Program-made: the position numbers and the translations under genes
Notes under the pieces: model-generated
Seen by the model: only the letters and a program-made list of their open reading frames with translations
What the model was told of the DNA's origin: nothing
Database searches by the model: none
Part shown: positions 688 to 17,341 of the stretch, one piece after another
How the letters are laid out: every line of letters starts with the position of its first letter
Numbering within the stretch: the stretch's first letter is position 1
Source of the DNA: Helicobacter cetorum
GTDB lineage: Bacteria > Campylobacterota > Campylobacteria > Campylobacterales > UBA6016
Reading direction: 5' to 3'
NCBI GenBank assembly: GCA_022729705.1
Contig: DZAX01000003.1
Location: 81,214 to 116,318, forward strand
DNA length: 35,105 nt

Positions 688-1788
688 TCAAAGTGAAATT
701 GACATAATCGGCAACAGCATAGCTATTAGCACGATACCCACAAAACTTCCAACCACAAGCATCAACATCGGTTCCAAAAGGGTGATAAACATTGTTACTT
801 TGCGCTTATTTTGTTCGGCGTACATCTCAGAGAGCGTTAGCATTGTAGCGGCTAGGCTTCCGCTCTCTTCGCCTAGATATATTGTCTGAATAAGGGCTTC
901 ATCCATTGGTGCGTATTTTAAAAGCGCTTTTGATAGTGGTGTGCCTTCGCTTATGGAGTCTGAGACTTTTAAAAATAGTTTTTTTAGGTAGATGTTGTCT
1001 ATGGCGTCTATACTGAGCCTAAAAGCTCTTGACATGGTCACGCCTGCGTTTGCCAGCATTGAGACTACAAACAGAAATTTTGATAGTTCGCTTCTTATAA
1101 AAAAACCTTTTATCGGCCAAAGAGAGATTTGAGTCTTTGCGAGAGCTAGAGCTACTTTTTCATTTGTTTTTACAAGTGTAATCGCTCCCGTTGGAGCCAG
1201 TATCATAAAGGCTATAAGCGGATATTGGTATTTTCCGACAAAATCAGAAATAGCTATAACTATTTTCGTTATCGTAGGCAGCTCGCAACCCGTCTTTGCA
1301 AAAGTCTCCACCATAACCGGAACCGCCACGGTAAACATAACTCCAAGCAAGATTACAGAAGCAAAAACGATAAAAGATGGGTAAGCCAAAGCTTTTTTAA
1401 TCTCCGCTGCAAAAATGATTTTTTGAAATATAGCGGTATGCAAACTAGCAAACGCTCTTTGCAAAAACGCGCCCTCTTCCGCCATTTTGATTGTTTGCAA
1501 AACATATTGCGGCAACTTGATTATAGAGTCCGCCTCTAGCGAGCGATAAAAACTAACCCCCTCCTCAAGCCTTTGTATAATCCTATCCAGATACGCTTTT
1601 ATCGTATCGTTTTTTCTATATTGGACGGCGCATAGCTTCAGGGCGTTTGAGATTGTGATGCCGGACGCTGTGTATGTGGATAGATCTTTTAAGATTGCGG
1701 ATAGAACTTCATCGCTTAGTTTATTTTTGCCAAGAGTTCTAAGATTTAGTTTTCTATTTATGTTTGTGTAGACGTAACCATTCAGCAC
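688..1788 (-). pseudogene. gspF: gspF main part, separated from its N-terminus by a MITE
   Basis: This encodes the inner-membrane platform protein of a type II secretion system. It holds both T2SSF domains and the membrane segments (for example IKKALAYPSFIVFASVILL and the C-terminal LLEPMLMLVVGSFVGIVLI). The open frame starts at a GTG (1788) that lies inside the terminal repeat of an inserted element, so its first residues are element-derived. The true first 40 codons lie at 1912-2034, beyond the insertion. Removing the element and one target copy joins the parts in frame into about 398 residues, the usual GspF length. A purine-rich AGGGG abuts the GTG with no spacing, so reinitiation is uncertain. 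An element-borne promoter at 1805-1833 points into this part. It could be a pseudogene or a split gene making an N-terminally shortened protein. Confidence 0.85.
1766..1773. repeat. Target site duplication of the MITE, gspF-body side
   Basis: GTGTAGAC occurs directly outside the terminal inverted repeat and is identical to 1916-1923. On the coding strand it reads GTCTACAC and encodes the V-Y-T found at the end of the N-terminal gspF fragment and again at the start of the main part. Confidence 0.92.
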
Positions 1789-1915
1789 CCCTGTAAAAAA
1801 ATGAAAATTAGCATGGAAAAGTGGCTATTTCAATAAGAAAAAAGAAAAAATATCGACTCTTTTGAGGATTTCATCTCAAAAATTGAGCTTTCAGAAGGGG
1901 GTGCTGAATGGTTAC
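1774..1915. mobile_element. 142-bp MITE with GTAA ends, likely IS66-related
   Basis: Perfect 18-bp terminal inverted repeats (GTAACCATTCAGCACCCC at 1774-1791; its complement at 1898-1915) bound a 142-bp stretch with no coding capacity. The flanks are identical 8-bp copies of GTGTAGAC (1766-1773 and 1916-1923), a target site duplication. Ends beginning GTAA and 8-bp duplications are hallmarks of the IS66 family, so this is probably a non-autonomous IS66-type element; the family assignment is inferred. It sits in codon 40 of gspF and brings several in-frame stop codons, the first inside the terminal repeat. Confidence 0.9.
1805..1833 (-). promoter_or_regulatory. Outward sigma70-like promoter inside the MITE
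   Basis: On the minus strand, TTGAAA (1828-1833) and TAATTT (1805-1810) are separated by exactly 17 bp. A TG one base upstream of the -10 gives an extended -10 (TGCTAATTT). It points into the remaining gspF body, and the predicted start lies only about 10 nt before the GTG at 1788. This is prediction from sequence only. Confidence 0.5.
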
Positions 1916-2034
1916 GTGTAGACAATACTTTTTCCACTAAGAGTTTTTTTCGCCTCTTCGAGGTTTTTTGCCTCTATAGTTCCGCTAACTTCGTTTTGCG
2001 TGAGGTCATACCCCTTGTAATAGTAGTTAGCCAT
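1912..2034 (-). pseudogene. gspF: gspF N-terminal 40 codons, cut off by the MITE
   Basis: The ATG (2034) overlaps the end of gspE (GAATGGCTAA), an overlap typical of coupled genes. The peptide begins MANYYYKGYDLTQNEVSG and ends KSIVYT, then TAA inside the element's terminal repeat. The start (short Tyr-rich strand, then EVSGTIEA) is the usual beginning of GspF/PilC proteins. Joined to 688-1765 it restores a full-length family member. It was missed by ORF calling because it is only 40 codons long. Confidence 0.85.
1916..1923. repeat. Target site duplication of the MITE, N-terminal-fragment side
   Basis: This is the second copy of GTGTAGAC, immediately outside the terminal repeat that ends at 1915. 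The 142-bp element plus one 8-bp copy equals 150 bp, a multiple of three, but the element contains stops in the gspF frame. Confidence 0.92.
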
Positions 2035-3529
2035 TCAAAAACAACGCTTTTTTGGCTTCCAAAAGGGAGCTTTCACCACTAAGCACAAGCTCTTTTAGCG
2101 ACGTCTTTATCGTCTTCATCCCTTTTTTGAGGGCTAAATGCAAGAGCTCATTTTCATTTTGTTTTTTTGCGATAGCCGCTCTTATTTCGGAGTCGACAAA
2201 AAGTATCTCTCCTACGGCTATTCTACCCAAAAATCCGGTATTTCTGCACGCCTTGCAACCAACGGACGTATACGCTTTTGAAGGGTGGTTTATAGTCAAA
2301 AGCTCGTCTGTTATTAGTTCCGCCTCCTCTGTTTTGCAGTGTGGGCAAAGCTTTCTAATAAGTCTTTGCGCCAGTATGCCAACAAGCGAGGAGGAGATCA
2401 AAAACTCCTCAATACCAACATCTCTAAGCTTTGACACAGCGGAAACAGCGCTATTTGTGTGAAGCGTTGAAAATGTCAAGTGTCCCGTCAAAGCCGCTCT
2501 TACGGCTAGTTTTGCAGTCTCTTTGTCTCTTATTTCGCCCACCATAATAATATCAGGGTCTTGTCTTAGTATCGCCCTAAGTCCGCTTGCAAAGGTTAAG
2601 CCTACCGCTTCGTTTACTTGTATTTGGGTGATATTTTTTGCTTTGTACTCTATCGGGTCTTCTATCGAGACGACGTTTTTTTCGCTATTGTCTAGCGTCT
2701 TTAGTATTGAGTGAAGAGTAGTTGTTTTACCAGAACCCGTGGGACCCGTCACTATAACCATTCCATATGGCGAGCCGACTAGCGTCTTTAGGGCGTCTGT
2801 CGTTTTGTTGTCAAATCCTAGCTCCTCCAAAGACGGAATAGCGTCTGAGTCGAGAAGTAGCCGCATAACCGCTTTTTCACCGTAAAACGTAGGGAGCGTG
2901 GAGACTCTGACGTCTAGCTTTCTGCTTTGAATGGAGAGGTTGATTCTGCCGTCCTGTGGTACTCTTTTTTCTGAAATATCAAGATTTGAGACGACTTTGA
3001 TTCTGCCTATTACGGCCTTGATAAGAGAGGGCTTCATCTGTAAAAATTCAATTAGCAAGCCGTCCACCCTGAATCTAACGACGCCGCCGCTCTCGCGACT
3101 CTCTATGTGAATATCTGAGACTCTTTGTTTGACGGCTTCATAAAAGATAGAGTTTACAAACCTAATGACGGGGGCGGCGTTTTCGTCCGCCAAAATATCG
3201 TCTGAAAAAACCGAAAATGGGTCGATAAAAGCTGTTTCGTCGATAGCGATATTGTGGGAGTCAAGCTCTTCTCTCTCTTTGCTGAAAATCCTATTTTTTA
3301 ACTCCTCATAAACTCCGCTCTCCGCTATGCAAATAAGCTGCTCGGCGGAGTGAAACGCCGCAAAAGAAAGAGCGTTTGCAAGATGCTCTTTTGTTGTGAG
3401 TAGCCTGTTTTCGCCGTTTAGGGATATAGGTAAGATAGAGTTTTTGAGAGCTAACGCATTATCGATATGCTCTATATTGGCGGGTTCAATTTTTTTAGCG
3501 TAGAGCTCTTCTTTTGCTATTGTGGTCAT
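2027..3529 (-). CDS. gspE: Type II secretion ATPase GspE
   Basis: This is the cytoplasmic hexameric ATPase that powers pseudopilus assembly. In its 500 residues one sees the N1/N2 region, then the core motifs: Walker A GPTGSGKT (262-269), an Asp box (SIEDPIEY, about 288-295), Walker B DIIMVGEIRD (326-335) and a His box near LTFSTLHT (351-358). Two CxxC pairs (C395/C398, C425/C428) form the zinc-binding CM domain typical of GspE/PilB. The N-terminal region is shorter than in PilB. The start ATG overlaps the stop of the small gspD stub (ATGA), and its end overlaps the gspF start. The catalytic residues look intact. Confidence 0.95.
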   Translation of the reverse strand: MTTIAKEELYAKKIEPANIEHIDNALALKNSILPISLNGENRLLTTKEHLANALSFAAFHSAEQLICIAESGVYEELKNRIFSKEREELDSHNIAIDETAFIDPFSVFSDDILADENAAPVIRFVNSIFYEAVKQRVSDIHIESRESGGVVRFRVDGLLIEFLQMKPSLIKAVIGRIKVVSNLDISEKRVPQDGRINLSIQSRKLDVRVSTLPTFYGEKAVMRLLLDSDAIPSLEELGFDNKTTDALKTLVGSPYGMVIVTGPTGSGKTTTLHSILKTLDNSEKNVVSIEDPIEYKAKNITQIQVNEAVGLTFASGLRAILRQDPDIIMVGEIRDKETAKLAVRAALTGHLTFSTLHTNSAVSAVSKLRDVGIEEFLISSSLVGILAQRLIRKLCPHCKTEEAELITDELLTINHPSKAYTSVGCKACRNTGFLGRIAVGEILFVDSEIRAAIAKKQNENELLHLALKKGMKTIKTSLKELVLSGESSLLEAKKALFLNG

Positions 3530-7254: not shown

Positions 7255-8811
7255 ATGACAAGCACACAGCAACGAGCCGAACTACAAAACCAAATTTGGA
7301 AAATTGCAAATGAAGTAAGAGGGAGCGTTGATGGATGGGATTTTAAACAATATGTATTAGGTACTCTGTTTTATAGATTTATTAGCGAAAACTTTGCCGC
7401 TTATATCGAGGGCGGGGATGAGAGTGTTAATTATGCAACTTTGCCTGACAATGTCATTACTCTTGATATTAAAGATGATGCTACCAAAACCAAAGGTTAC
7501 TTTATCTATCCCGGCCAATTATTTGTAAATATAGCCAAAAATGCCAATGAAAACCCAAATTTAAATACAGATTTAAGCGCTGCATTTTCGGCTATTGAAG
7601 CTAGCGCTAATGGCTACCCATCAGAATCAGACATTAAAGGACTTTTTGCGGATTTTGACACTACGAGCAATAGATTAGGAAACACGGTAAAAGATAAAAA
7701 CTCTCGATTAGGTGCAGTTTTAAAAGGTGTGGCTGGACTTAATTTTGGAAAGTTTGAAGACAATCACATAGACCTTTTTGGTGATGCTTATGAGTTTCTT
7801 ATCTCAAACTATGCGGCAAATGCAGGTAAATCCGGCGGAGAGTTTTTCACCCCTCAAAGTGTTTCAAAGCTCATTGCACAACTTGCGATATTGGGGCAAG
7901 AGAAAGTCAATAAGATTTATGACCCTGCGGCCGGTTCTGGTTCACTTTTGCTTCAAACAAAAAAACATTTTGATGCTCATATCATAGAAGACGGATTCTT
8001 TGGGCAAGAGATAAATCACACTACTTACAACCTTGCTCGCATGAATATGTTTTTGCATAATATCAACTATGATAAATTTAACATTGCGCTTGGTAATACT
8101 CTAATAGCCCCACATTTTGGAGATGATAAACCATTTGATGCGATAGTCTCTAATCCTCCATATTCTGTAAACTGGATAGGTAGTGATGACCCTACACTTA
8201 TCAATGATGATAGATTTGCCCCTGCGGGAGTACTAGCACCCAAATCCAAAGCAGATTTTGCTTTTGTATTGCATTGTCTTAGTTATCTATCTCCAAAAGG
8301 AAGAGCGGCGATAGTTTGCTTTCCTGGTATTTTCTATCGTGGCGGAGCGGAACAAAAAATAAGAAAATATCTAGTAGATGGCAACTATGTAGAGAGTGTT
8401 ATCTCCCTTGCTCCAAATCTATTTTTTGGCACATCAATAGCGGTTAATATCTTGGTGCTTTCAAAACATAAAACAGACAACAAAACACAGTTTATCGATG
8501 CAAGTGAACTTTATAAAAAACAGACCAATAACAATATCTTAACTTATGAGGGCGAGAACAATCATATAGAGCGTATTATGAAAGTGTTTGATGTTAAAGA
8601 GAATATTGCCCATTTTGCTAAGTGTGTGGACAATGAGACAATAGCCGAAAATGACTATAACCTCTCCGTTAGCTCGTATGTAGAAGCCAAAGAGACAAGG
8701 GAAATGGTGGATATAAATAGATTAAATGCCGAACTTAAAACTACAGTTGCGAAGATAGAGACTCTTAGAAGTGAAATAGATAAAATTGTTGAGAGTATTG
8801 AAAATGAGTAA
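7255..8811 (+). CDS. hsdM: Type I restriction-modification DNA methyltransferase HsdM
   Basis: This is the modification subunit; with HsdS it methylates adenine at N6 using S-adenosylmethionine. The protein has 518 residues: an N-terminal helical domain ([19 protein letters not shown], about 5-23), SAM-binding motif I ([10 protein letters not shown], from residue 223) and catalytic motif IV NPPY (300-303). A C-terminal coiled region (about 480-518) matches HsdM of the type IC family. The ATG has AGAGGA 8 nt upstream. All motifs are intact. Its stop overlaps the start of a repeat-encoded frame (ATG 8804). Confidence 0.96.
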
Positions 8812-9109
8812 TGAACGGCTAAAAAACGATGGTTCTATTTTTGTCGTCATTGCGGGCTTTTTCTTTCCCGTCATTGCAGGCTTGACCTTTCCCGTCATTG
8901 CGGGCTTGACCTTTTCCGTCATTGCGGGCTTGACCTTTTCCGTCATTGCGGGCTTGACCCGCAATCTCTCCCATGTCATGAGATTCCGCATCAAGTGCGG
9001 AATGACAAACCTCACCTACGGAATGACAAACGGTGTCATTGCGGGCTTGACCTTTTCCGTCATTGCGGGCTTGACCCGCAATCTTTATCCGCAAAGAATA
9101 CACAGATGA
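8804..9109 (+). CDS. Possible repeat-encoded protein between hsdM and the GIY-YIG gene
   Basis: The 101-codon frame starts at an ATG overlapping the hsdM stop and begins [18 protein letters not shown]. It runs through the whole repeat array as repeated SVIAGLTF units, and its TGA overlaps the ATG of the next gene (ATGA). hsdS begins with the same MSN. Either this is the remnant of a gene start (possibly an hsdS-like gene) overrun by repeats, or it is a translated spacer that couples the two genes. The repetitive composition makes a folded function unlikely, and I hold it only as a possible coding region. Confidence 0.25.
8845..9085. repeat. Palindrome-derived repeat array 1 (24-bp period)
   Basis: Units beginning CGTCATTGCGGGCTTGACC recur exactly every 24 bp at 8845, 8869, 8893, 8917 and 8941, and again at 9034-9035 and 9058-9059. 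Complete palindromes ATTGCGGG-CTTGA-CCCGCAAT and ATTCCGCA-TCAAG-TGCGGAAT are included. The composite core (two palindromes joined by a CTCCCATGTCATGAG-type spacer) is the reverse complement of the core in arrays 2 and 3. No unique spacers are present, so it is not a CRISPR. Confidence 0.92.
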
Positions 9110-9726
9110 AAGAAACAGCATATATTTACTTGATGAGCAATCAACATAATACTGTTTTGTACATTGGCGTAACCAACGATTTAACTCGCAGAATTGCCGA
9201 ACATAAAGCAAAGATAAACAAAGGATTTACAGCCAAGTACAATGTGAATAAATTGGTCTATTTTGAGACAACCTCGTCTATCTATGATGCGATAAGCAGA
9301 GAAAAGCAACTTAAAAACTGGAAGCGTGACTGGAAAAATGCCTTGATAAACAAAGACAACCCAAGCTGGGACGATTTGTCAAGCTCTATTGGCGTTGATA
9401 ATGAGATGATTGAAACAGTTCGAAAATACTATCAGGAGATTGCGGGTCAAGCCCGCAATGACAAAAGAAGTCAAGCCCGCAATGACAAACAAGAAAAAGC
9501 CCGCAATGACACCGTTTGTCATTCTGAACTTGAGGTTTGTCATTCTGAACTTGAGGTTTGTCATTCTGAACTTGAGGTTTGTCATTCCGCACTTGAGGTT
9601 TGTCATTCTGAACTTGATTCAGAATCTCACGACATGGGAGAGATTGCGGGTCAAGCCCGCAATGACGAAAGAAGTCAAGCCCGCAATGACGGAAAAGAAA
9701 AAGCCCGCAATGACGGAGGTGAATAA
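9106..9726 (+). CDS. GIY-YIG nuclease-family protein with repeat-encoded tail
   Basis: The first about 95 residues match the small URI/YhbQ-type GIY-YIG group: TAYIYLMSNQHNTVLYIGVTN, then RRIAEHK, GFTAKYNVNKLVYFE, and AISREKQLKNWKR before PSWDDL. Family members normally end here. This one continues for about 95 more residues encoded by repeat array 2, giving repeated QARND, CHSELEV and SESHDMGE units, up to TAA 9724-9726. The ATG 9106 is chosen because it begins the domain and overlaps the preceding stop. The stop overlaps the fic start (TAATG), so the tail also couples translation to fic. The role in the hsd operon is unknown; the domain could be a nuclease. It is not a homing-type protein with a DNA-binding domain. 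Confidence 0.8.
   Translation: MKETAYIYLMSNQHNTVLYIGVTNDLTRRIAEHKAKINKGFTAKYNVNKLVYFETTSSIYDAISREKQLKNWKRDWKNALINKDNPSWDDLSSSIGVDNEMIETVRKYYQEIAGQARNDKRSQARNDKQEKARNDTVCHSELEVCHSELEVCHSELEVCHSALEVCHSELDSESHDMGEIAGQARNDERSQARNDGKEKARNDGGE
9436..9714. repeat. Palindrome-derived repeat array 2 (21- and 24-bp periods)
   Basis: A block of GCCCGCAATGAC-type units is followed by five 21-bp units starting GTCATT at 9518, 9539, 9560, 9581 and 9602. The last is a complete palindrome ATTCTGAA-CTTGA-TTCAGAAT. After it come the spacer CTCACGACATGGGAG and another set of GCGGG-type units. It lies inside the GIY-YIG reading frame, and all periods are multiples of three. It shares orientation and core with array 3. 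Confidence 0.92.
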
Positions 9727-10331
9727 TGATTTTGGATAATAAACTAGGTATAACCAACCAAATAGAACTTGCCCGTGCAGAAGAGAAAATCAGTAAACAA
9801 AAAGCAAAACAACTTTTTGACTCTAGGGATATAGACAAAGCGGAGATTGGGACATTTGCGGGGCTTGGCTTTATCCATGATTATCTTTTTTTGGATATTT
9901 ATCCTTTTGCAGGAAAAATCAGAACAGTTAATATCTCAAAAGATGATTTTCGTTTTGCTCCGCTAATGTATCTTGAAGCTTCGCTAAAACATATTGACAC
10001 CATGCCTCACAGTAATTTTGATGAGATAATCGAAAAATATGTAGAGATGAATATCGCCCACCCATTTCGTGAGGGCAACGGAAGAGCTACGAGAATATGG
10101 CTTGATTTGATACTCAAAAAAGAGATTAAGCAAGTCATCGATTGGAACAAAGTGGACAAAGATGAGTATCTATCATGCATGAAAAGAAGTGTAGTAAAAG
10201 ATATAGAAATCAAACACTTATTTCGCTCAGCCCTTACAGAACAGATAAACGACCGTGCTTTGTTTATGAAAGGTATTGATGTGAGTTACTACTATGAGGG
10301 TTATAGTGAATTTAAGACAGAGGAGCTATAG
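9726..10331 (+). CDS. fic: Fic-domain AMP-transferase, class III-like
   Basis: Fic enzymes usually transfer AMP from ATP to a hydroxyl on a target protein. The full catalytic motif HPFREGNGRATR is present (H112 to R123), so the site looks active. The upstream beta-hairpin flap region (KIRTVNISKDDFRF, about 64-77) is also present. Near the C-terminus, S187-YYY-E191-G192 fits the (S/T)xxxE(G/N) inhibitory-helix motif, and a C-terminal position is that of class III Fic proteins such as NmFic, which are similar in length (about 190-200). It would therefore be autoinhibited without a separate antitoxin. The ATG overlaps the preceding TAA, and a repeat array separates it from hsdS. The target is unknown. 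Confidence 0.9.
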   Translation: MILDNKLGITNQIELARAEEKISKQKAKQLFDSRDIDKAEIGTFAGLGFIHDYLFLDIYPFAGKIRTVNISKDDFRFAPLMYLEASLKHIDTMPHSNFDEIIEKYVEMNIAHPFREGNGRATRIWLDLILKKEIKQVIDWNKVDKDEYLSCMKRSVVKDIEIKHLFRSALTEQINDRALFMKGIDVSYYYEGYSEFKTEEL

Positions 10332-10335
10332 CCAA

Positions 10336-10625
10336 ATGACACCGTTTGTCGTTTTGCAAGCGAGGTTTGTCATTCTGAGCCCGAGGTTTGTCATTTTGCA
10401 AGCGAGGTTTGTCATTCTGAACCCGAGGTTTGTCATTTCGCACTTGAGGTTTGTCATTCCGCACTTGAGGTTTGTCATTTCGCACTTGAGGTTTGTCATT
10501 CCGCACTTGAGGTTTGTCATTTCGCACTTGAGGTTTGTCATTCCGCACTTGATGCGGAATCTCACGACATGGGAGAGATTGCGGGTCAAGCCCGCAATGA
10601 CGGAAAAGGTCAAGCCCGCAATGAC
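10336..10625. repeat. Palindrome-derived repeat array 3 (21-bp period, ten units)
   Basis: Ten 21-bp units start GTC at 10348 and every 21 bp to 10537. Units 5-10 alternate GTCATTTCGCAC and GTCATTCCGCAC, a 42-bp higher-order repeat amplified three times. The last unit is a complete palindrome ATTCCGCA-CTTGA-TGCGGAAT, followed by the CTCACGACATGGGAG spacer and GCGGG-type units. A plus-strand frame (from ATG 10336) stays open across the whole array and ends at 10647, inside the start of hsdS. Confidence 0.93.
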
Positions 10626-10639
10626 GAAAGGTGAAACAA

Positions 10640-11770
10640 ATGAGTAATATAAAAGAACTGCTTGAGGGCGTAGAGGTGGAGTGGAAGAGTTTGGGGGAGG
10701 TTGCGAATATAACAATAGGCGAATTTGTACATCAGGATAAACAAAATCCATCTGCAAGATATCCTGTCTATAATGGCGGAATAAAGCCAACAGGTTATTA
10801 CGAAGAATATAATAATAAGGGCAATAAAGTAATTGTAAGTGCAAGAGGTGCGAATGCAGGATTTGTTAATAAAATGCTAGAGCCATATTGGGCAGGGAAT
10901 AGTTGCTATTCGATTAGTGCAAAAGATGAAATTCAATTAAATTGGGAATTTGTTTTCTATCTTTTAAAATCAAATGAAAATAAAATGATTAGCAGTCAAC
11001 AAGGAGGAGGAATTCCCGCTATTTCAAAGAAGCAAATGGAATCTTTTCAAATCCCAATCCCCCCTCTCCATATCCAAAGTGAAATTGTCCGAATTTTGGA
11101 CAATTTCACAGAGCTTACAGCAGAGCTTACAGCAGAGCTTCATGCGAGAAAAAAACAGTATCAGTTTTACAGAGATAAATTATTGTCGTTTGAAGATGGG
11201 GAAGTTGAGTGGAAGAGTTTGGGGAAAGTTGTAGTTAGAAGCAAAGGCACACCAATAACGGCTACACAAATGAAAATCCTTGATAAGCCAAATGCACCTG
11301 TAAAAATTTTTGCAGGTGGCAAAACTATTGCATATTTTGATTATGATGATTTGCCACAAAAAGATATAAATACTTTTCCATCCATCATTGTAAAATCGCG
11401 TGGAGTAATAGAATTTGAATATTATGATAAACCTTTCAGTCATAAAAATGAAATGTGGTCTTATCATAGTGAACACAATGAAATAAATATTAAATTTATT
11501 TACTACTTTCTTAAAACCCAAGAAGAGCAATTGCGAAATAAAGCAACAAGCATGGGAGCTTTTCCTCAAATTGCAATTTCAGATACAGAAAAACTCCAAA
11601 TCCCCATCCCCCCACTGGCACAACAAGAAAAAATCGTCTCTATCCTCGATAAATTCGACACCCTAACAAACTCAATAAGCGAGGGTTTACCTCGTGAGAT
11701 AGCACTCCGACAACAGCAATATGAGTATTACAGAGATTTACTCTTGAGCTTTCCAAAGGATGTTTTATGA
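10640..11770 (+). CDS. hsdS: Type I restriction specificity subunit HsdS (type IC-like)
   Basis: This subunit recognises the two halves of the target sequence. The ATG at 10640 is preferred over GTG 10631 because AAAGGTG lies about 7 nt upstream. There are two target-recognition domains (about 15-150 and 195-335), each opened by nearly the same peptide (EVEWKSLG) from nearly the same DNA (10673 and 11202 regions), and each closed by an IPIPPL motif. The central spacer contains TEL-TAEL-TAEL encoded by a 12-bp tandem repeat, as in EcoR124. The C-terminus (LDKFDTLTNSISEGLPREI, then RQQQYEYYRDLLLSF) is also EcoR124-like. It overlaps the next gene by 4 bp (ATGA). Confidence 0.96.
   Translation: MSNIKELLEGVEVEWKSLGEVANITIGEFVHQDKQNPSARYPVYNGGIKPTGYYEEYNNKGNKVIVSARGANAGFVNKMLEPYWAGNSCYSISAKDEIQLNWEFVFYLLKSNENKMISSQQGGGIPAISKKQMESFQIPIPPLHIQSEIVRILDNFTELTAELTAELHARKKQYQFYRDKLLSFEDGEVEWKSLGKVVVRSKGTPITATQMKILDKPNAPVKIFAGGKTIAYFDYDDLPQKDINTFPSIIVKSRGVIEFEYYDKPFSHKNEMWSYHSEHNEINIKFIYYFLKTQEEQLRNKATSMGAFPQIAISDTEKLQIPIPPLAQQEKIVSILDKFDTLTNSISEGLPREIALRQQQYEYYRDLLLSFPKDVL
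11111..11140 (+). repeat. 12-bp tandem repeat in the hsdS spacer (TAEL)
   Basis: GAGCTTACAGCA occurs twice, followed by a third GAGCTT, and encodes E-L-T-A repeats in the central helix region. In the EcoR124 family a change in the number of TAEL repeats changes the length of the nonspecific gap in the recognised DNA sequence. That this copy number varies in this organism is inferred. Confidence 0.85.
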
Positions 11771-12330
11771 TAGACAAAATTAATCAAACAAAACAACTCA
11801 TAAGTGAGATAAATAGGTTGCATTGCACATTTTCAAATGATTATTTTGAGATGAGCAAAATCGATAAGATAAATCTATCAAAAACAATCCAGCATATCCC
11901 TGTGTCGCATATCTACACCTATCGCCTTACTTTGCATGAGAGTATTAACGATTATTTGATGGGGGCGGATATTGAGATAAAGTATTTTTATCGTGTTAAA
12001 ACACGCGAGAGTATCGATGACAAGATTGGGCGATTTTCAAGCAGAGAAGACCAATATCCTGTCAACAACTGGCTTAATGATATTTTTGGTGCTCGTATCG
12101 TTTTAACCTCAAGTGAGATAGAAACTATGATGAATTTGCTTGATGAATGGCAAGAGGAATTGAGTCTAAAAAATTGGTATTTTCGCCAAAAAGAGGGCTA
12201 CAGAGGAGTTCATATCTATTTCAAAAATAAGAGTAATTTTTATTTTCCGTGGGAGTTGCAAGTTTGGGATTTAGATGATGTCCAAAACAATATCAAAAAT
12301 CATCAGAAGTTTAAACGAAACTTTATATAA
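11767..12330 (+). CDS. RelA/SpoT-like nucleotidyltransferase inside the hsd operon
   Basis: The 187-residue protein has a recognisable RelA_SpoT synthetase-type core: YRVKTRESIDDKI (75-87), NDIFGARIVL (104-113, with the Asp and Arg of the family's D-x-x-G-x-R pattern), GYRGVHIYF (144-152, in place of Y-x-S-x-H) and ELQVWD (163-168, in place of E-x-Q-I-R-T). The acidic residues expected to hold magnesium are present, so activity is plausible. There is no hydrolase (HD), TGS or ACT domain, so it is a single-domain protein like small alarmone synthetases and toxSAS toxins. It overlaps hsdS by 4 bp and lies 9 bp before hsdR, firmly within the operon. It could make an alarmone or modify RNA; a degenerate member is also possible. 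Confidence 0.72.
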   Translation: MIDKINQTKQLISEINRLHCTFSNDYFEMSKIDKINLSKTIQHIPVSHIYTYRLTLHESINDYLMGADIEIKYFYRVKTRESIDDKIGRFSSREDQYPVNNWLNDIFGARIVLTSSEIETMMNLLDEWQEELSLKNWYFRQKEGYRGVHIYFKNKSNFYFPWELQVWDLDDVQNNIKNHQKFKRNFI

Positions 12331-12339
12331 AGAAAAACA

Positions 12340-15300
12340 ATGAGTCTTGAAACCAAACCAATAGCCGAGCTAAACAATTTTATCGTTTTGGATAAATACA
12401 CAAAGATTGAACAAGAGGGTAGTTCCTATCAGAGTGAAGCTGATTTGGAAAATGAACTAATCAAAGATTTACAAAATCAAGGTTATGAGTTTTTAAATGA
12501 TTTAAATAGCCCTGAAGCACTATTGGCAAATGTGAGGGTGCAAATCGGAGAACTCAATCGTGTAGAGTTTGGTGATGGCGAATGGAGTCGTTTTGCAGAG
12601 GAGTATCTAGACAAGCCAAGTGATAACATCATCGAAAAAACTCGTAAAATCCATGATGACTATATCTATGATTTTGTGTTTGATGATGGGCGTATCAAAA
12701 ATATCTATCTCCTTGATAAAAAAAATATCAGCAGAAATAAAGTGCAAGTCATTTCACAATTTGAACAAAAAGGGACACAGCTAAATCGTTATGATGTGAC
12801 TATTTTGGTCAATGGTTTGCCACTGGTGCAGATTGAACTCAAAAAAAGAGGGGTTGCGATAAGGGAAGCCTTTAACCAGATGCACCGATACTCAAAAGAG
12901 AGTTTTAATAGTGAGAACTCTCTCTATAAATATTTGCAGATTTTTATCATATCAAACGGAACCGATAGCAGATACTTTGCAAACACTACCAAAAGAGATA
13001 AAAATAGTTTTGATTTTACGATGAACTGGGCTAAGTCTGATAATACACTTATCAAAGACCTCAAAGATTTCACGGCTACATTTTTACAAAAAAAGACTCT
13101 GCTTGATGTGCTTATTTGCTACAGTGTTTTTGATGTGAGCGATACTTTGCTCATTATGCGACCCTATCAGATAGCCGCAACTGAGCGACTTATTTGGAAA
13201 ATAAGAAGTTCATATCAGGCAAAAAATTGGAGTAGCTTGGAGGGTGGAGGATATATCTGGCACACGACAGGAAGCGGTAAAACGCTTACAAGCTTTAAAG
13301 CGGCAAGGTTGGCGACGGAACTTGATTTTATCGACAAAGTGTTTTTTGTGGTGGATAGAAAAGACCTTGATTATCAGACTATGAAAGAGTATCAGAGATT
13401 TTCACCAGGTAGTGTCAACGGAAGTGATAGCACGGCAGGACTTAAGAAAAATATAGAAAAAGATGATAACAAAATCATCGTTACGACTATCCAAAAGCTC
13501 AACAACTTGATGAAAAGAGAAAATGACTTGGCGATTTACTCAAAGCAAGTGGTTTTTATCTTTGATGAAGCGCATCGTAGCCAATTTGGAGAAGCCCAAA
13601 AGAATTTGGCTAAAAAATTTAAAAAATATTATCAATTTGGTTTTACGGGGACTCCAATTTTTCCTGAGAATGCTTTGGGCGCTGAAACGACTGCGGGTGT
13701 ATTTGGTACAGAGTTGCACTCGTATGTGATTACCGATGCAATTCGTGATGAAAAAGTATTGAAGTTTAAAGTAGATTATAATGATGTTCGACCACGGTTT
13801 AAAGAGTGCGAGAGCGAAATCGATGAAAAAAAACTGAGTAGCCTTGAGAACAAACAAGCATTGCTGCACCCTGTAAGGATAAATGAGATTGCTGGGTATA
13901 TTTTAAACAACTTCAATCAAAAAACTCACCGTCTGCAAGTGGGGGCGAAGGGCTTTAATGCAATGTTTGCAGTAAGTAGCGTGGATGCAGCAAAGCTTTA
14001 TTATGAAGCGTTTAAGAACTTGCAAAAAGATAAAGAGAGACCACTTAGAATCGCTACTATTTTTTCATTTGCCGCCAATGAGACACAAGATGCCATCGGA
14101 GATATTGAAGATGAAACATTTGAACCAACGGCGATGGATACTAGCGCCAAAGAGTTTTTAAGCGCCGCTATTGGTGATTATAATGCGATGTTTAAAACTT
14201 CGTATGGAGTTAGTGCGCAAGAGTTTGCAAACTATTATAAAGACCTTGCAAAAAGAGTAAAAAACAGAGAAGTTGATTTACTTATTGTCGTGGGTATGTT
14301 TTTAACCGGTTTTGATGCACCGACTTTAAATACTTTGTTTGTAGATAAAAATCTAAGATACCATGGTTTGATACAAGCATATTCACGAACCAATAGAATC
14401 TATGATACAACTAAAACATTTGGAAATATTGTAACTTTTAGAGATCTTGAACTTGCAACAATTGATGCAATAGCTTTATTTGGAGATAAAAATACTAAAA
14501 ATGTAGTTTTGGAAAAAAGCTATACCGAATATATGCAAGGCTTTACGGATATAGTCTCAGGCGAAGCTAGAAGAGGTTATTTGGATATAGTTGAAGAACT
14601 TGAACAAAAATTCCCAAATCCTGAAACTATAGAAAAAGAGAAAGATAAAAAAGAGTTTGCAAAATTGTTTGGTGAGTACTTAAAAGCTGAAAATATACTG
14701 CAAAATTATGATGAGTTTGCAGGATTAAAAGCGCTACAAAATTTGGATGTGAGTGATGCAAGAGCCGTAGAAGAATTTAAAGCAAAGCATTATTTGAGCG
14801 ATGAAGATTTGAGCAAAATGCAAGAGATTAAAATACCATCAGAGCGAATCATTCAAGATTACAAATCAACATATAATGATATTAGAGAGTGGATTAGAAC
14901 GAGGAAAATACCCGAAGAGGAGGCAGAATCTACTATTGATTGGAATGATATAGTTTTTGAAATTGATTTGCTCAAATCACAAGAGATCAATCTTGATTAT
15001 ATTTTAGAATTGATTTTTGAAAAAAATAAAAAAGTTAAAGATAAAACAAAATTAGTTGAAGAAGTTAGAAGAGTAATTAGGGCTAGTTTGGGCAATAGGG
15101 CGAAAGAGGGCTTGATTGTTGATTTTATCAATCAAACAAATTTGGATGAGATTTTAGATAAGGCAAGTATTATTGATGAGTTTTTTAAATTTGCACAAGC
15201 GGAACAACAAAAAGAGGCAAATGAGTTAATTGGCGATGAAAACTTAAATGAAGAAGCTGCAAAAAGATATATTGTTACTTCTTTAAAACGAGAGTATACA

Positions 15301-15441
15301 AGTGAAAACGGTACAGAACTAAATGCTATTTTGCCAAAGATGAGTCCACTCAATCCGCAATATTTAACAAAAAAACAGAGCGTTTTTCAAAAAATTGCTG
15401 CGTTTGTTGAGAAGTTTAAAGGGGTTGGCGGGAATGTTTAA
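12340..15441 (+). CDS. hsdR: Type I restriction endonuclease/translocase HsdR
   Basis: This is the ATP-driven DNA translocase and nuclease subunit (1033 residues). The N-terminal nuclease domain shows [10 protein letters not shown] with E166 and K168 of the PD-(D/E)xK site and a following MHRY. The SF2 helicase core has Walker A HTTGSGKT (308-315), motif II DEAH (409-412), motif III FTGTP, and motifs V/VI near [21 protein letters not shown] and [10 protein letters not shown]. The C-terminal helical region (about 780-1033) is that of type IC HsdR. It looks full length and intact. It is last in the operon and follows the RelA-like gene closely. Confidence 0.97.
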
Positions 15442-15735: not shown

Positions 15736-17341
15736 ATGAGATTAAATAGTAAAATTTTTTTTACATCAGCTTTTTTGGCTATAGCCTTTAGTGCGCCGAC
15801 GCATGCGGCACCCGCAAAAAATGACCCGGTCGTAGAGGTAGGCTTTGCAGATATTGCGTTATCTGATTTTGTAAAAACCGTTTCCAAAATTACAGGTAAA
15901 AACATACTTATAGCTACTGAATTGCAGGGTAAAGTGGATTTTGTAGCACAAAGACCCCTTAGAAAAAGCGAGCTATACGATCTGCTTATTAACACACTAG
16001 AGACCAAAGGATATACAATAGTTTCAAGTGACAAAGGGTATCTAAAAGTAGTCGCATTGTCGGATGCGGTAAGGCATAACTTACCGTTAAACGAGTCTTC
16101 GCAGATTCCACAAATGAGAACAAAAGTAATTAAACTCTCAAATCTAAAAGCGGCGGAGGCTCAAAATACGGTTAGACATCTACTCTCAAAAAGCGGCGCA
16201 CTCCAACCGTCCATGGAATCAAACGATTTAATCATATCTGACTTTCCAAAAAATGTAGAGACGATTTCAAAAATAATAGCCCAAATGGAGCGAGACAGCG
16301 AGAAAAAAGCGTATGTGACGGCGGTAATAATACTAAAAAATGGCGATAGTGAAAACATATCCAAAGCCCTAAATGAGTTATTAAGTAAAAAAACAGTCAT
16401 CAAGGATGCGCCAAAGCCGGTAATATCACCAGACGCCCATACAAATTCGCTAATAGTAATCTCAACATCAGAAGAGTTGACGGAGATAAAAAATATTATC
16501 AAAGCGCTTGATGTGGAGCGTCAGCAAGTGTACGTAAGGGCAAAGATTATAGAACTAAACAACGAAAAGACTAGGCAAGTTGGAGTAAAGTATGGTATTC
16601 AGGGGGCTACAGCAAGCTCTAGCGGGCTATATAGTTTCTCTGCTCTTTTGGGTGGAACGCCTATAGCCATTGGTCAAGAAATACTAAAATATATATCGAT
16701 TTCAAACATTAAAGAGGGGTTGGCGCTAGGGGCTACGATAGCTCTTCTTGGTGAGGAAAAAGCTGCAAACTTGCTCTCCGAGCCGTCTATTTTATGTATA
16801 AACAATCAAGAATCCTCAATCTACGTAGGCAAAACTGTGCCAATAGTTACACAGTCCACTATAAATGCAACAACAATAGATCTTGCAAAAAAATAGTTAC
16901 ACGAGACAGGATATAGGTCTCTTGCTAAAGATAAAGCCGCGCTTATCAAACGATGGCAAAGTGGCGCTTACTATAGAGACAAAGCTTGAAGATACATTTT
17001 CTCAAGATATAGTAGGGCTTCCTACAACAACAAAAAGAGAGCTAAAAACAACAGCAATCTTATCCAACGGAGAACCTGTAATTATAGGCGGACTCATCAA
17101 AGACGACGATAAAAGCGGTCTTAGTAAAGTGCCTTTTTTGGGAGATTTGCCAATTGTTGGAAATCTCTTTAAATATGATCAAAGTTCAAAAGATAAAATC
17201 AATCTAGTCGTGATACTAACCCCGTATATAGTCGACAAAAGCTCGGATTTGGCGACGCTTAGAGCAAAACTGGGCGAGCTTGATTCATTGCAAAGTGAAT
17301 ACTCAAAAAAAATACAAAGTAAGAAGATTACAGAGGAGTAA
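15736..17341 (+). pseudogene. gspD: Type II secretin gspD, relocated and frameshifted at an A7 tract
   Basis: GspD forms the outer-membrane channel of the T2SS. The first frame (15736-16896) holds a signal peptide (ending near THAAPA), N0 (VEVGFADIALSDFVKTVSKI), two further N domains and the start of the secretin domain, with VKYGIQG and VGKTVPIVTQS. It ends LAKK-stop in a run of seven A (16887-16893). The secretin continues in the next frame (from about 16889) as NSYTRQDIGLLLKIKPRL and VIIGGLIKDDDKSG, to 17341. One A fewer would give one 534-residue protein. It could be a true mutation, slippage-controlled expression or a sequencing error. Its RBS and first codons match those of the stub at 3526-3621. 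It stands alone on the opposite strand from the gsp operon. Confidence 0.9.

What the first reader, a model, noticed from the sequence alone, without database searches (positions are those of the whole stretch)
1766..1923. MITE inserted in gspF with intact target duplication
A 142-bp element with perfect 18-bp GTAA-ended inverted repeats and 8-bp duplications divides gspF after codon 40. Removing it restores about 398 residues. The perfect ends suggest a recent insertion. The IS66-like ends imply mobilisation by a transposase elsewhere.
Basis: partly seen in the sequence, partly recalled or inferred. Interest (0 to 1): 0.65.

Follow-up and report, generated by a model that had tools for sequence, protein, structure and literature searches.

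The report
Recent IS66-type MITE insertion in gspF
A 142-base, gene-less jumping DNA piece, one of five almost identical copies in this bacterium's genome, has landed in and cut a secretion-system gene (gspF), and was most likely moved by a many-copy insertion sequence in the same genome whose ends are almost the same; the insertion is real, but of an ordinary kind.

Summary
A 142-bp element (1774-1915) with perfect 18-bp inverted repeats is flanked by the 8-bp repeat GTGTAGAC. It cuts gspF after 40 codons; kept apart, the two halves map to adjacent stretches of uninterrupted homologues. The element is a real mobile family: the genome holds five 142-bp copies, four identical, the fifth with two changes; four of five have exact 8-bp target duplications.

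The same genome carries a multi-copy IS with nearly the same ends (one difference in the first 17 bp), seen at 7 left and 11 right contig ends. Six of the 7 left ends pair with a right end by an identical 8-bp duplication. Those ends encode the start and end of an IS66 TnpC-like transposase with no room for tnpA/tnpB outside it, so the partner is most like the ISBst12 subgroup. Its interior is not assembled.

No MITE of this kind was found in other genomes or viral contigs. No close relative holds a gspF orthologue, so a DNA-level empty site cannot be shown. Context: gspD in the window also has a broken frame, so the secretion system may already be decaying; another MITE copy clips cas12a. This is a new member of a known kind.

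The parts
1774..1915 (.). 142-bp MITE, no reading frame of note
   Evidence: five copies in the genome
1774..1791 (+). terminal inverted repeat, left arm GTAACCATTCAGCACCCC
1898..1915 (-). terminal inverted repeat, right arm, identical on the opposite strand
1766..1773 (.). 8-bp target duplication, copy 1 (GTGTAGAC)
1916..1923 (.). 8-bp target duplication, copy 2 (GTGTAGAC)
1912..2034 (-). gspF 5' part: 40 codons, then TAA at 1914-1912 supplied by the element's GTAA end; overlaps the end of gspE
   Evidence: 34-38 residues align to the N-termini of order homologues
688..1773 (-). gspF 3' part, open to its stop, holds both T2SSF domains; the in-frame start at the junction is a GTG inside the element at 1788 with no spaced ribosome-binding site
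   Evidence: PF00482, E 2.4e-40 for 688-1788
2027..3529 (-). gspE ATPase, upstream neighbour, overlapping the gspF start
   Evidence: PF00437, E 2.8e-132
15736..17341 (+). gspD secretin in two frames (15736-16896 and 16883-17341), broken near a poly-A run at about 16,887-16,893

Best explanation
[quoted passage not shown] It was inserted recently into gspF and was mobilised in trans by a transposase of a single-ORF (ISBst12-like) IS66-family element that is present in at least 11 copies in the same genome. Insertion duplicated 8 bp of target and, because the end reads GTAA, placed a TAA stop directly after gspF codon 40. The downstream 358 codons are left without a good start, so GspF is most likely not made in full. 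Shown: structure, copy number, target duplications, the IS with nearly the same ends and the same 8-bp duplication, and coding ends that resemble IS66 TnpC. Inferred: that this IS, rather than a lost relative, moved the MITE, and that GspF function is lost.
For: Five 142-bp copies, four identical, four with exact 8-bp duplications. IS ends GTAACCATTCACCACCC[C/A] at 7 left and 11 right contig ends; 6 of 7 left ends pair with a right end by identical 8 bp, against 0 at 691 of 692 control offsets and 1 at the other. The left end starts an ORF at base 59 (MTEQEARDIYHQGEEA) like the IS66 N-terminus of G009, and the right end encodes ISTLKKNSIPVLSGLRDALGGRAYMPVGVGW*, matching the end of PF03050 transposases (BLASTP E 8e-8; scores far above shuffles). 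A complete single-ORF relative with GTAACCAC ends, 1477 bp, is in G250. Published ISBst12-group ISDge4 has an end GTAACTGCTCAGCA, one ORF and an 8-bp repeat (PMC12898284). The halves of gspF are colinear with uninterrupted homologues in 23 genomes of the order.
Against: The interior of the partner IS is not in the assembly, so an intact transposase is not shown; the only PF03050 matches in the genome are three fragments, two of them beside a different end. MITE and IS share only the ~17-bp end, with one difference, and no internal sequence. One MITE copy (C62) has no target duplication. No DNA-level empty site is available.
Confidence: 0.85

Rival explanations
1. The MITE was moved by a different IS66 element with G at end position 12, now lost from this genome or missing from the assembly, not by the resident many-copy IS.
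For: MITE ends carry G12, as do IS66 elements of other genera in the order (G070, G027, G130), while all resident full-length IS ends carry C12.
Against: A degraded remnant in the same genome (C48) carries C12 with a MITE-like interior, so both end types occur in the family; no G12 end of a longer IS was seen in the genome.
Confidence: 0.12
2. The MITE is a stable repeat of regulatory use (a 5' leader or attenuating hairpin) rather than a passing insertion: several copies sit just upstream of start codons and the transcript would fold into a long hairpin.
For: C62 lies 5 bp before a C5-methyltransferase start, C20 about 41 bp before a chemotaxis receptor, C33 about 60 bp before a hydrogenase small-subunit gene; RNA fold -45.2 kcal/mol, z -7.7.
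Against: The fold is explained by the inverted repeats; orientation relative to the genes is mixed; two of five copies interrupt genes; no promoter-like site in the element; the copies are too alike for selection to be read from them.
Confidence: 0.02
3. Assembly artefact: a repeat wrongly placed into gspF.
For: The genome is in 75 contigs and repeats are a source of breaks and misjoins; one copy (C62) lacks the duplication.
Against: The exact 8-bp duplication at this and three other sites, with different flanks each time, is not what a misjoin gives; the two gspF halves on either side belong to one gene; at 142 bp the element is within reach of ordinary reads.
Confidence: 0.01

Closest known systems
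ISBst12 subgroup of the IS66 family (e.g. ISDge4 of Deinococcus geothermalis)
   Same: ends GTAAC..(C)TCAGCA, 8-bp target duplication, single transposase ORF between the ends (PMC12898284)
   Different: the MITE has no transposase; the resident IS is known only by its ends; sequences differ beyond the end motif
MITECca01 of Cardinium (IS982-derived MITE)
   Same: short lineage-specific MITE, probably kept moving by a multi-copy parental IS with matching ends (PMC9769881)
   Different: other IS family; 169 copies there against 5 here; there a few internal bases are shared with the parent, none seen here
Canonical multi-gene IS66 elements (tnpA, tnpB, tnpC)
   Same: GTAA ends and 8-bp duplication (from general knowledge; 8 bp also for the IS66 elements in PMC3281130)
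   Different: the resident IS starts its transposase-like ORF at base 59 and ends it inside the right end, leaving no room for tnpA/tnpB outside it

Membership tests
MITE (non-autonomous element with terminal inverted repeats) | short, no transposase gene, inverted-repeat ends | tested here: met
   142 bp, 18-bp perfect repeats, stops in all three frames of the gspF strand
MITE (non-autonomous element with terminal inverted repeats) | several copies at different sites with target duplications | tested here: met
   five copies, four with exact 8-bp duplications
MITE (non-autonomous element with terminal inverted repeats) | moved in trans by a transposase of an IS with the same ends | not testable with these tools
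   an IS with nearly the same ends is present, but activity needs an experiment
IS66 family ends | ends begin GTAA and insertion duplicates 8 bp | tested here: met
   MITE; resident IS: 6 of 7 left ends paired at exactly 8 bp
IS66 family, ISBst12 subgroup (resident partner IS) | single TnpC-type DDE transposase, no tnpA/tnpB | tested here: inconclusive
   start and end of the ORF abut the IS ends and resemble IS66 TnpC, but the interior is not assembled
T2SS GspF | two T2SSF domains, next to gspE, homologues across the order | tested here: met
   PF00482, E 2.4e-40, two stretches, beside gspE; homologues in other families of the order, about 31-37% identity

The most novel reading that the evidence does not exclude
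The MITE family acts on its host: copies placed a few to about 60 bases before start codons (methyltransferase, chemotaxis receptor, hydrogenase) and at the end of cas12a change expression of those genes through the leader hairpin or by supplying stop codons, so that the burst has rewired several systems at once.
Probability: 0.08. Interest if true: 0.5.

Novelty: new member of a known kind. Interest (0 to 1): 0.3.

Why it matters
It documents a young MITE of IS66 type, seen in this genome only, together with its probable driver. Single-ORF IS66 elements are little studied; active transposition of an ISBst12-group element was reported as a first only in 2026 (PMC12898284). The system could be used to test which end bases the transposase needs (position 12). 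For the host, it marks a secretion system possibly under relaxed selection, with gspF and gspD both broken in this assembly.

Tried and rejected
A pattern of two facing ends 95-155 bp apart gave no match in the species genomes or the viral contigs (the own genome may be left out there); a distant DNA search of plasmids gave none. Matches to the MITE in 18 other genomes of the order are short stretches without the ends and were not taken as copies; that search scored only two candidates per genome, so diverged copies could be missed. The idea that the IS66 fragments at C2, C19 and C34 are the driver was dropped: two carry another end (GTAACCACTCACCTACCC) and all are fragments. A promoter in the element was looked for and not found. 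The perfect ends as a dating argument were set aside, since every copy has them.

Full report
Observation. The window carries GTGTAGAC at 1766-1773 and 1916-1923, and between them 142 bp with perfect 18-bp inverted repeats at 1774-1791 and 1898-1915. In the whole 35-kb window no other place has an 18-bp perfect inverted repeat 40-3000 bp apart with an 8-bp direct repeat outside.

What it interrupts. On the minus strand gspE (2027-3529; PF00437, E 2.8e-132) is followed, with an 8-bp overlap, by a start at 2034 that opens MANYYYKGYDLTQNEVSGTIEAKNLEEAKKTLSGKSIVYT and meets TAA (1914-1912) formed by the element's GTAA end. Beyond the element the frame continues as VYTNINRK... to 688, with both T2SSF domains (PF00482, E 2.4e-40). 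The two halves were kept apart and compared with full-length homologues from 23 genomes of the order. The N half maps to the N-terminus of the homologues and the C half starts at the residues that follow; in the two cases where the C half aligns from its first residue, it overlaps the N half by two or three residues, as the 8-bp duplication predicts (L085, L091). The homologues are uninterrupted, about 31-37% identical. The two congeneric genomes held lack a gspF orthologue, so no empty site can be shown at DNA level.

Other copies. The own genome (2.19 Mb, 75 contigs) holds 142-bp copies at C62, C33, C20 and C65 besides the window's C40. Four of the five are identical and C65 differs at two bases. 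Exact 8-bp duplications flank C40, C33, C20 and C65, each with a different sequence; C62 has none. A 99-bp diverged variant (C42) and one-ended remnants (C48, C35) suggest that the family is older than the present burst. A search of 399 genomes of the order gave no full-length match outside the own genome, and a facing-ends pattern gave none in species genomes or viral contigs.

The partner IS. Searching the genome for the end with up to three mismatches gave 35 places against 0 for the reversed pattern. Beyond the MITEs and remnants these are ends of a longer element, GTAACCATTCACCACCCC (left) and GTAACCATTCACCACCCA (right). They lie 47-108 bases from a contig end, as expected for a multi-copy element that the assembler could not span. 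Seven left and 11 right ends were counted. Six of the 7 left ends have the same 8 flanking bases as some right end; at 692 control offsets the count was 0 except once, and for 7, 9, 10 or 12 bases it was 0. The IS thus makes the same 8-bp duplication as the MITE.

What the IS encodes. The left end opens an ORF at base 59, MTEQEARDIYHQGEEA..., like MTKQEAENIFNQGKEA... behind the same end in G009, where an IS66 zinc-finger domain (PF13005) follows in a neighbouring frame of a decayed copy. The right end encodes ISTLKKNSIPVLSGLRDALGGRAYMPVGVGW and stops inside the end. This matches the C-termini of PF03050 transposases behind GTAACCATTCAGCACC ends in other genera. There is therefore no room for tnpA and tnpB outside the ORF, as in the ISBst12 subgroup. 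A complete relative in G250 is 1477 bp with one 458-residue PF03050 protein. ISDge4 (PMC12898284) is the closest described example found, with an end GTAACTGCTCAGCA, one ORF and an 8-bp repeat. The interior of the resident IS is not assembled; PF03050 finds only three fragments in the genome, two of them beside a different end.

Mechanism. The best reading is mobilisation in trans by the resident IS66-type transposase. Position 12 of the end differs (G in the MITE, C in the IS), so a lost G12 relative remains possible. Whether the IS copies are intact is not known.

Consequences. GspF is probably not made in full: the first part stops at codon 40, and the in-frame start at the junction is a GTG (1788) directly abutting AGGG, without spacing (inference). 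The secretin gene gspD in the same window is in two frames (15736-16896 and 16883-17341), broken at a poly-A run, while a pseudopilin gene gspG on contig C70 is open. Either the secretion system was already decaying when the MITE arrived (or since), or the gspD break is a sequencing error. Hence the MITE need not have cost the host a working system.

Verdict. The finding is a well-supported, ordinary insertion by a new MITE of a known kind.

Noticed in passing
L135 1062-4784 (G000 C65:29561-33283): Another MITE copy ends the frame of a type V-A cas12a gene 13 codons before its former end (TAA from the GTAA end); a Cas4-like start (MEPYIPISFLNDFIFCPRS) follows directly. Whether Cas12a still works is unknown.
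   Followed up: partly
window 15736-17341: gspD secretin gene is split between two frames at a poly-A run; real decay or sequencing error.
   Followed up: partly
L002 463-1644 (G000 C62): MITE copy without target duplication sits 5 bp before the start of a C5-cytosine methyltransferase gene, where the ribosome-binding site would be.
   Followed up: no
window 7255-15441: Type I restriction-modification locus (HsdM, HsdS, HsdR) with several small ORFs between.
   Followed up: no
G000 contig ends (C2, C18, C19, C20, C41, C55, C61, C73, C74): Contig order can be inferred from the paired 8-bp duplications of the collapsed IS (e.g. C2 right end to C20 left end, C41 to C19, C55 to C61).
   Followed up: yes
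L044, L045 (G000 C2, C19): Fragments of a second IS66-type element with ends GTAACCACTCACCTACCC.
   Followed up: partly
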